Below are positions 10,211 through 15,517 of a stretch of DNA of 64,000 nt, in pieces. The position numbers and the translations under genes were made by a program. The notes under the pieces were generated by a model. It had not been told where the DNA came from. It searched no databases and saw nothing but the letters and a program-made list of their open reading frames with translations. Location: contig NZ_JAAATW010000003.1 of the NCBI RefSeq assembly GCF_009908315.1, positions 558,001 through 622,000 of the forward strand, read 5' to 3'. The stretch comes from Paragemmobacter ruber (GTDB taxonomy: Bacteria > Pseudomonadota > Alphaproteobacteria > Rhodobacterales > Rhodobacteraceae). The number at the start of each line of letters is the position of its first letter. Positions within the stretch are counted from its first letter, which is position 1.

Positions 10211-10663
10211 ATGAGCGACAGCGACCTCGTCAAGCTCTATTCGGGCCGCATCCTTGAACTCGCGGCAGATATCCCGCATCATGGCCGCCTCCCCGCGCCC
10301 GACGGGACCGCGCGCAAACGCTCGCCCCTTTGCGGCTCCACCGTCACTGTGGACCTCACGCTGGAGGGCGACCGCATCGCCAGCTACGGGCAGGACGTAA
10401 AGGCCTGCGCGCTGGGTCAGGCTGCGGCCTCTCTCACCGCCCGCGCCATGATCGGCCGCACACGGGACGAGGTGGCCCGCGCCCGCGCCGAACTCGAAGC
10501 CATGCTGAAACGCGGCGGCCCCGTCCCCGCCGCCCCCTTCGACGGGCTCGAGGTTCTGCTCCCCGCCCGCGACTATGCCAACCGCCACGCCTCCATCCTT
10601 CTGTCCCTCGACGCAACGCTCGCCGCGATGGACGCGGCGCTGACGGCCCGCGCAGCGGGCTGA
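10211..10663 (+). CDS. IscU/NifU N-terminal-like protein lacking the third cysteine
   Basis: A 150-residue protein with the fold of Fe-S cluster assembly scaffolds (IscU/SufU). Cys41 (SPLCGS) and Cys66 (KACALG) align with the first two scaffold ligands. The third ligand, within a HCS motif in IscU, is replaced here (NRHAS, Ala127), and the aspartate following the first Cys-Gly is serine. A classical scaffold role is therefore doubtful; it may be a degenerate or specialised member. It starts behind GGAGGGAAAGGC and is divergent from hisI. Annotation as scaffold is by similarity only. Confidence 0.8.
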   Translation: MSDSDLVKLYSGRILELAADIPHHGRLPAPDGTARKRSPLCGSTVTVDLTLEGDRIASYGQDVKACALGQAAASLTARAMIGRTRDEVARARAELEAMLKRGGPVPAAPFDGLEVLLPARDYANRHASILLSLDATLAAMDAALTARAAG

Positions 10664-10691: not shown

Positions 10692-10721
10692 AAAAAACCG
10701 CCGCACGTCCTGAGACGGCGG
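10692..10721 (-). terminator. Intrinsic terminator of the 39-codon membrane protein gene
   Basis: On the minus strand a CCGCCG / CGGCGG stem with a 12-base loop is followed directly by TTTTTT. It is oriented to end transcription from the small gene at 10812-10931. Confidence 0.85.
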
Positions 10722-10811
10722 CGGTCAGTGACTTCGTTCGATTTGGACAGGCAGGGCTGCCATCCGCGCGCCGCTTGGGGACAGGCGCATCAGAACAAAG
10801 CAGGCAGAAAA

Positions 10812-10931
10812 TCAGGCAGACAGAATGTGCAGTGACAGCACCAGCATGGAAAACAGCGCGACGACACCCACCAGATCCTCGATCACCGTGGCACGGGAGC
10901 GGGAGAGAATATCCTTCATATCCGTCAGCAT
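10812..10931 (-). CDS. Small inner-membrane protein, probably SOS-induced
   Basis: A 39-residue protein. A short basic/acidic amphipathic N terminus (MLTDMKDILSRSRATVIEDL) is followed by one hydrophobic helix (about residues 20-38, VGVVALFSMLVLSLHIL). Translation is well supported: GGAGG lies five bases before the ATG at 10931, and a strong terminator follows. Upstream, at 10988-11002, is a perfect alphaproteobacterial LexA site. Size and topology resemble SOS-induced cell-division inhibitors such as Caulobacter SidA, though I see no sequence identity to it. The gene is real on signal evidence; the division-inhibitor role is inference. Confidence 0.8.
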   Translation of the reverse strand: MLTDMKDILSRSRATVIEDLVGVVALFSMLVLSLHILSA

Positions 10932-10987
10932 TGTGGCCTCCATGTTTCTGTTGCTACTTTGTTCTCATGATTCTCGGGTTCTGTAAA

Positions 10988-11002
10988 GAACTTTTTAAGA
11001 AC
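10988..11002 (-). promoter_or_regulatory. LexA operator (GTTC-N7-GTTC)
   Basis: On the minus strand the sequence reads GTTC TTAAAAA GTTC, an exact match to the LexA box established for Rhodobacter and other alphaproteobacteria. It lies 57 bases upstream of the 39-codon gene and after the recG stop, so the only gene it can plausibly control is the small one. A TTTACA that could act as -35 overlaps its downstream edge. Confidence 0.82.
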
Positions 11003-11024: not shown

Positions 11025-11062
11025 CTCCCTCCCCCAGTCATGGGGGAGGGTCGGGGAGGGGG
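11025..11062. repeat. REP-like GC-rich hairpin, copy 2
   Basis: The 9-bp perfect stem CCCTCCCCC / GGGGGAGGG (11027-11035, 11042-11050) is followed by TCGGGGAGGGGG, the same design as at 507-549. It lies downstream of recG. Confidence 0.6.

Positions 11063-11120: not shown

Positions 11121-15517
<4,397 letters not shown>

What the first reader, a model, noticed from the sequence alone, without database searches (positions are those of the whole stretch)
10692..11002. LexA-controlled 39-residue membrane protein: candidate SOS cell-division inhibitor
A complete tiny transcription unit lies between the IscU-like gene and recG: a perfect GTTC-N7-GTTC LexA box, a GGAGG binding site, a 39-codon gene for a single-helix membrane protein, and an intrinsic terminator. 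Alphaproteobacteria lack SulA and use small membrane proteins (SidA in Caulobacter) to stop division after DNA damage. This gene has the expected size, topology and control, but no sequence resemblance to SidA that I can see. It could be the Rhodobacteraceae counterpart.
Basis: partly seen in the sequence, partly recalled or inferred. Interest (0 to 1): 0.75.

Follow-up and report, generated by a model that had tools for sequence, protein, structure and literature searches.

The report
Damage-induced tiny membrane protein family
Next to the DNA-repair gene recG lies a 39-residue membrane protein that appears to be switched on by the DNA-damage (SOS) response; most sampled relatives in its bacterial family keep this gene and switch together, and it is a good but untested candidate for the protein that halts cell division while DNA is repaired.

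Summary
The 39-codon gene (10931-10812, minus strand) has a GTTC-N7-GTTC LexA box abutting a TTTACA element, a GGAGG site and a strong terminator hairpin. A profile of the protein matches 170 of 198 genomes of its family (Rhodobacteraceae in the GTDB sense) and nothing convincing outside that family in a class sample of 289. Of 150 copies fetched on protein similarity alone, 145 carry the N7 box upstream, against 4 of 5830 random windows; 143 of 150 lie downstream of recG. The frame is under purifying selection, 88 of 88 close pairs. Conserved residues form one face of a single membrane helix, which points to a specific membrane partner. LexA control is thus very well supported by sequence. 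The role as division inhibitor, working like SidA or YneA on FtsW, is the best explanation but rests on analogy. Rivals: a TisB/DinQ-like membrane toxin, or a regulator of another membrane protein. No Pfam or NCBIfam model matches, and ten searches of an open-licence library listed no paper that I recognised as describing it.

The parts
10988..11002 (-). LexA operator 1, GTTCTTAAAAAGTTC (GTTC-N7-GTTC), abutting the -35 element
   Evidence: an N7 box within 160 nt upstream in 145 of 150 relatives; the same kind of box lies upstream of lexA, recA, uvrA, a uvrD/pcrA-like and an error-prone polymerase gene in this genome
10982..10987 (-). -35 element TTTACA
   Evidence: box followed directly by TTKA in 129 of 150 relatives; assignment as -35 inferred from likeness to the sigma-70 consensus and fixed spacing
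10950..10964 (-). second, degenerate LexA-like site GAACAAAGTAGCAAC (GAAC-N7-CAAC) over the expected -10/start region
   Evidence: among the 129 relatives with box plus TTKA, GAACA lies 17 nt after the -35 hexamer in 117 and the half-site at +11 is CAAC in 110 and GAAC in 5; role as operator inferred
10937..10941 (-). ribosome-binding site GGAGG, five bases before the ATG
   Evidence: GGAG, GAGG or AGGA within 3-18 nt of the start in 131 of 150 relatives
10812..10931 (-). 39-aa single-helix membrane protein MLTDMKDILSRSRATVIEDLVGVVALFSMLVLSLHILSA
   Evidence: family in 170 of 198 genomes; pN<pS in 88 of 88 close pairs of relatives; helix 13-38 in the AlphaFold2 model, pLDDT 97 for residues 21-30
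10692..10726 (-). intrinsic terminator: GC-rich hairpin followed by six T
   Evidence: -24.5 kcal/mol, z -4.16, 0 of 200 shuffles as stable; not reported by the consensus scan
11121..13205 (-). recG, upstream neighbour on the same strand, conserved synteny
   Evidence: NCBIfam NF008164 1106.7 bits; recG upstream on the same strand in 143 of 150 relatives
10211..10663 (+). SufU/NifU_N-like gene, convergent neighbour, conserved synteny
   Evidence: convergent downstream in 125 of 150 relatives, no match in 25

Best explanation
It is a one-gene SOS unit. In undamaged cells LexA sits on operator 1, which abuts the -35 element, and probably on operator 2 over the -10/start region, and shuts the promoter. 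After DNA damage RecA triggers LexA self-cleavage, a short-leader mRNA is made and translated from GGAGG-ATG, and a 39-residue protein enters the inner membrane with its N-terminus in the cytoplasm. There one face of its helix (R11, T15, D19, G22, L26, L30, residue 33, and P37 in most relatives) docks on a membrane-embedded division protein, most likely the septal peptidoglycan polymerase FtsW or its FtsI/FtsN partners, and holds the divisome inactive until repair is done. Shown by sequence: gene, box, promoter block, conservation, synteny, purifying selection, conserved helix face. Inferred: LexA binding, induction, topology, partner, and division arrest.
For: Family in 170 of 198 genomes, one match each; 137 of 149 in the order sample. 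N7 box in 145 of 150 relatives chosen on protein alone, 115 of the 120 outside the profile; spacing is specific (N5 0, N8 2, N9 6 of 150); random windows 4 of 5830. Reverse test: 33 named-genome matches to an exact promoter block alone, 32 of 33 followed by a family ORF at E<1e-3, the 33rd by what I read as a diverged one. The same box type lies upstream of lexA, recA, uvrA, a uvrD/pcrA-like and an error-prone polymerase gene in this genome. pN<pS in 88 of 88 pairs. D19 and G22 in 117 of 117 forty-codon members, L34 in 116. Conservation has helical periodicity at 100 degrees, 23 of 10000 shuffles as strong; no K or R in residues 19-40 of the 117. SulA in 0 of 21 genomes. Known analogues: SidA, 29 aa, LexA-controlled, acts on FtsW (PMC4211646, passages); Caulobacter lexA mutants filament through sidA (PMC12700426, passages); YneA TM helix binds FtsW TM7, and AlphaFold 3 models of no high confidence suggest the same for SidA, ChiZ and SosA (PMC13396833, abstract and passages).
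Against: No phenotype, expression or binding data were available. LexA controls many genes that do not inhibit division; DinQ is a LexA-controlled single-helix peptide of E. coli that did not change filamentation (PMC3567139, passages). The partner is unknown; stable linkage to recG could point elsewhere. 5 of 150 relatives lack the exact N7 box. 28 of 198 genomes have no profile match; in 18 of these 28 no box abutting TTKAC was found either. 8 of 13 genomes with no LexA hit still have the gene (9 of the 13 are in 260 or more contigs), so the association with LexA is weak (Fisher p 0.023). No kinship to SidA was shown.
Confidence: 0.6

Rival explanations
1. A TisB/DinQ-like SOS peptide that depolarises the inner membrane and slows metabolism (persistence), normally kept down by an antisense RNA.
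For: Same size class, single hydrophobic helix, LexA control; DinQ and TisB are precedents (PMC3567139, abstract and passages).
Against: After D19 the helix carries next to no charge (K+R 0.00, D+E 0.01 on average in 117 members). The gap from the expected start site to the ATG is about 20 nt here (inferred) and the box-to-start distance varies little (median 78, quartiles 74-83), which leaves little room for the structured leader used in antisense control. No Rfam family reached its gathering score in the region. Conservation follows one helix face, not mere hydrophobicity.
Confidence: 0.15
2. An SOS-induced small regulator of another inner-membrane protein (a protease, transporter, sensor kinase or competence/gene-transfer-agent component), not of the divisome.
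For: A conserved helix face predicts a protein partner but does not name it; single-helix microproteins that regulate transporters or kinases are known (recalled). In Dinoroseobacter shibae predicted LexA sites are reported for dprA, recA, the GTA cluster, pilus and flagella genes (PMC6473078, passages).
Against: Presence in 170 of 198 genomes, beside recG in 143 of 150 and not beside a membrane system, fits a core checkpoint better than an accessory one.
Confidence: 0.2
3. Not a gene: the conserved piece is only a promoter or small RNA downstream of recG, and the ORF is incidental.
For: In diverged lineages the promoter is better kept than the protein.
Against: pN<pS in 88 of 88 pairs (pairs share members, so not independent), lowest entropy at codon position 2 and highest at position 3, invariant D19 and G22; 117 of 150 exactly 40 codons.
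Confidence: 0.02

Closest known systems
SidA of Caulobacter crescentus
   Same: LexA-controlled, tiny (29 aa) inner-membrane protein in an alphaproteobacterium with GTTC-N7-GTTC boxes (PMC4211646, PMC12700426, passages)
   Different: here 39 aa (mostly 40 in relatives) with an N-terminal part before the membrane helix; locus beside recG; the family profile found nothing convincing outside its own family; function not shown; direct sequence comparison not done
YneA (Bacillus) and ChiZ (Mycobacterium)
   Same: DNA-damage-induced single-helix division inhibitors; YneA helix binds FtsW TM7 (PMC13396833, passages)
   Different: YneA and ChiZ carry a LysM domain, and YneA needs it; this protein has almost nothing beyond the membrane helix
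SosA of Staphylococcus
   Same: SOS-induced small membrane division inhibitor (PMC6851548, start of abstract in the listing; PMC13396833, passages)
   Different: another phylum; no sequence comparison was made
DidA of Caulobacter
   Same: small membrane division inhibitor induced by DNA damage (PMC4211646, passages)
   Different: DidA is SOS-independent and binds FtsN; this gene has LexA operators
TisB and DinQ of E. coli
   Same: SOS-induced small inner-membrane peptides (PMC3567139, passages)
   Different: those are type I toxins with antisense RNAs; no sign of such an RNA or of a long leader here, though no transcript data exist

Membership tests
LexA regulon, alphaproteobacterial type | GTTC-N7-GTTC operator at the promoter, conserved with the gene | tested here: met
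   145 of 150 relatives; random windows 4 of 5830; same box type upstream of lexA, recA, uvrA and a uvrD/pcrA-like gene
LexA regulon, alphaproteobacterial type | a LexA protein in the same genome | tested here: met
   TIGR00498 at G000:C1:57328-58023, 186.6 bits; N7 box 32 nt before the lexA start codon
LexA regulon, alphaproteobacterial type | LexA binding and DNA-damage induction in vivo | not testable with these tools
   needs footprinting and expression data
SOS-induced small membrane division inhibitors (SidA/YneA/SosA kind) | small protein with one membrane helix | tested here: met
   19-residue hydropathy maximum at least 1.68 in 117 of 117, up to 2.35 in the window protein; long helix 13-38
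SOS-induced small membrane division inhibitors (SidA/YneA/SosA kind) | blocks division, interacts with FtsW/FtsI/FtsN | not testable with these tools
   no experiment or complex prediction available
SidA proper | sequence homology to Caulobacter SidA | not tested
   no SidA sequence was obtained; the profile had no convincing match outside the family among 289 sampled genomes of the class, but whether these include a sidA carrier is unknown
SulA | Pfam PF03846 | tested here: not met
   no Pfam match to the protein up to E 1 (run on the 43-aa frame); 0 of 21 genomes have PF03846, with E. coli found as control
Type I toxin (TisB/DinQ) | antisense RNA and long structured leader | tested here: inconclusive
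   no Rfam match above gathering score; short leader inferred; no transcript data

The most novel reading that the evidence does not exclude
This is the founding member of an undescribed family of SOS checkpoint microproteins, spread through the Rhodobacteraceae (GTDB sense) and unrelated in descent to SidA. It would work without any extracytoplasmic domain, through one conserved membrane-helix face with an invariant aspartate and glycine at the cytoplasmic edge, and be controlled by a promoter clamped by two LexA operators (often with a third GTTC half-site) that evolves more slowly than the protein itself.
Probability: 0.45. Interest if true: 0.75.

Novelty: new member of a known kind. Interest (0 to 1): 0.62.

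Why it matters
How these bacteria (marine and soil Rhodobacteraceae, which include the hosts of gene transfer agents) stop dividing after DNA damage is not described in anything my ten searches listed, as far as I recognised. This gives one defined, deletable gene with a built-in damage promoter, present in 170 of 198 sampled genomes, and names the residues to mutate. If it acts on FtsW it would be an independent case for the idea that SOS microproteins converge on that enzyme.

Tried and rejected
Chance box: rejected by the relatives, the reverse test and the random control. Longer 43-aa start at 10943: thought less likely, since GGAGG overlaps that ATG and stands five bases before the later one; relatives align at the later Met, partly by construction because I took the start nearest the match, and 36 of 150 have some in-frame ATG further upstream. 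Operon with recG only: the gene has its own promoter and terminator; read-through from recG is not excluded. A plasmid or phage gene: no tblastn match to the 39-aa query in 72,556 plasmid or 50,697 phage records (one short query, so weak sensitivity). Known RNA: two sub-threshold Rfam hits only, both at 11025 or beyond on the plus strand. Consensus scans found no promoter or terminator. Gene against LexA presence: weak. Literature: ten searches; I saw the listings and, for six papers, passages. Two papers on LexA that I asked for by id are not held, so absence from print is not shown.

Counts to read with care. The 150 loci are 150 of 170 profile-positive genomes; 20 were not fetched, as their matches were not listed (weakest). 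In some searches two rows (L171, L186) show 12-aa proteins, and a few others are short, because my start-picking took an inner start; they were kept. Codon and residue statistics use the 117 of 150 members that are exactly 40 codons with ATG, so not the window protein, which has 39. The 5 without exact N7 box are L151, L187, L191, L196, L199; by eye L191 and L199 have a one-base variant, L187 has GTTC at N6 spacing, L196 and L151 have neither. In the window the third upstream half-site reads GATC, not GTTC. The random windows are mostly coding DNA; the spacing control uses the same upstream regions and is the fairer one. In one search the backwards control gave 6 matches in the 28 genomes against 11 for the pattern, so that pattern alone is weak there; the place behind recG is what counts. 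The 8 names in that list beyond the 20 printed were deduced by elimination. A2 leaves out one of the 33 named relatives (L228, ambiguous base).

Full report
What was checked. The LexA box GTTCTTAAAAAGTTC is at 11002-10988, followed directly by TTTACA (10987-10982). The site GAACAAAGTAGCAAC is at 10964-10950, GGAGG at 10941-10937, ATG at 10931, stop at 10814-10812, and a hairpin with six T at 10726-10692. The hairpin folds at -24.5 kcal/mol, z -4.16, with 0 of 200 shuffles as stable, although the consensus scan reported neither promoter nor terminator. The box is the only exact GTTC-N7-GTTC in 64 kb, but 1.3 are expected by chance, and the genome has 101 against 85 in the backwards control. So the box alone proves nothing; conservation has to decide.

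The family. With the single 39-aa sequence, 50 of 198 genomes of the window's family gave a match at E<=1e-3. The best 30 were aligned, and the profile matched 170 of the same 198 genomes, 149 of 174 good-quality ones, once each. In a class-wide sample of 289 genomes there were 6 matches: 4 in the same family, the window's genome included, and 2 at E about 0.0017 inside much longer frames, which I take as chance. In the order sample, where all 149 genomes are of this family, 137 matched. I call the family Rhodobacteraceae in the GTDB sense because two contigs, G192:C1 and G044:C18, have the lengths of contigs of Pseudooceanicola onchidii and an Antarcticimicrobium MAG, and 300 bases around the gene are identical; NCBI files both genera under Rhodobacterales, Paracoccaceae. 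No Pfam or NCBIfam model matches the protein.

The switch goes with the gene. I fetched 150 of the 170 matches, chosen on protein only. 145 have GTTC-N7-GTTC within 160 nt upstream; of the 120 not used in the profile, 115 do. The spacing is specific: N3 2, N4 5, N5 0, N8 2, N9 6, N10 5, N11 5, N12 4 of 150. N6 is also common (122 of 150): a third GTTC stands ten bases further upstream in 110 of the 129 relatives with box plus TTKA, though not in the window, where it reads GATC. Random 160-nt windows of the same loci: 4 of 5830. In 129 of 150 the box is followed at once by TTKA; among these, GAACA follows 17 nt after the -35 hexamer in 117, and the half-site 11 bases after GAAC is CAAC in 110 and GAAC in 5. 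I read this as a second operator over the -10/start region; that reading is inferred.

The reverse test. An exact promoter block was searched, without the gene, in named species genomes: 33 matches, one in a MAG labelled only Alphaproteobacteria, the others under names of Rhodobacterales (I looked up three genera; the rest is recalled). 32 of 33 are followed by a family ORF at E<1e-3; the 33rd, Jannaschia aquimarina, scores E 0.03 and I read its ORF as diverged. In the window's own genome a looser form of the block, GTTCTTKACN-N12-18-GAACAA, occurs once, at this gene, with 0 in the control. Of the 28 genomes without a profile match, 10 have a box abutting TTKAC, at 11 sites, but the backwards control also gave 6. 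At 7 of the 11 sites a hydrophobic ORF of 34-43 aa follows, judged by eye, and 6 of these 7 have recG upstream; one of the other four is recA. The promoter thus seems better kept than the protein.

This box type marks SOS genes here. The genome has one LexA match with an N7 box 32 nt before its start codon. I inspected 22 loci around N7 boxes, mostly picked for AT-rich spacers, of the 101 boxes, and sent nine proteins to NCBIfam: LexA (whole), RecA, UvrA, a PcrA/UvrD helicase, RuvB, an error-prone polymerase and a radical SAM protein were recognised, the last six from 120-residue pieces and so below whole-protein cut-offs; an ImuA-like match was weak (22.3 bits) and an ImuB-like protein, so named from recall, had none. 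The ruvB box overlaps the start codon region. The genes near the other inspected boxes were not tested. This is a positive control, not a regulon.

Place. recG is upstream on the same strand in 143 of 150. Of the 7 without, two have under 550 bases of upstream sequence and five have 1.5-2 kb without recG, so the linkage is broken there. The SufU/NifU_N-like gene is convergent downstream in 125 of 150; why the other 25 gave no match was not examined. A study of multi-chromosome bacteria reports that recG of some Alphaproteobacteria appears to be regulated by LexA (PMC3323433, passages); the box here is behind recG and reads away from it.

The protein. pN is below pS in 88 of 88 pairs under 33% difference, median dN/dS 0.335; entropy is lowest at codon position 2 and highest at 3. 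Of 117 forty-codon members, D19 and G22 are invariant and L34 is in 116. Conservation over residues 11-38 peaks at 100 degrees per residue, 23 of 10000 shuffles as strong, giving a face of residues 11, 12, 15, 19, 22, 26, 29, 30, 33, 37. Positive charge is only before residue 19 (mean 2.58 against 0.00), so N-in is expected by the positive-inside rule (rule recalled). AlphaFold2 gives helices 2-11 and 13-38, mean pLDDT 83.9, pTM 0.46.

How it most likely works. A protein that should be silent until DNA damage, sits in the inner membrane with almost nothing outside it, and shows one conserved helix face most likely docks on a membrane protein. The known cases of this kind act on the septal synthase: SidA on FtsW (PMC4211646, passages); the YneA helix on FtsW TM7, with models of no high confidence placing SidA, ChiZ and SosA there too (PMC13396833, passages). 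Caulobacter lacking lexA filaments because of sidA (PMC12700426, passages). SulA was found in 0 of 21 genomes. I therefore put division arrest at 0.6. The LexA-controlled DinQ, which did not change filamentation (PMC3567139, passages), shows why this cannot be higher.

Novelty. As a sequence family I found no description in ten searches of an open-licence library that lacks most subscription papers; as a kind of thing it belongs with SOS-induced membrane microproteins. Membership in SidA proper was not tested.

Noticed in passing
upstream regions of the 150 loci: Most relatives have three tandem GTTC half-sites, GTTC-N6-GTTC-N7-GTTC (third site in 110 of 129), plus an inverted GAAC-N7-CAAC: a multi-site LexA promoter, while about 97% of Caulobacter SOS promoters are said to carry one box (PMC12700426, passages).
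   Followed up: partly
L211 (own recA) and L265 (recA of G122): recA promoters in this family share parts of the layout: TGAGAAC-N7-GAAC in the own genome (read on the other strand), and box plus TTGACA-N17-GAACAT in G122.
   Followed up: partly
L208, box GTTCATGTTATGTTC: A PA0069/Rv2578c-type radical SAM gene has a LexA-like box directly upstream in this genome; possibly a further SOS gene.
   Followed up: no
L256, L257, L258, L260, L262, L263, L264: Small hydrophobic ORFs, seemingly fast-diverging versions of the protein, behind the same kind of promoter in genomes the profile misses.
   Followed up: partly
window 10211-10663: The SufU/NifU_N-like protein scores well below the SufU cut-off (52.1 against 92.5 bits) and may be a separate subfamily.
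   Followed up: no
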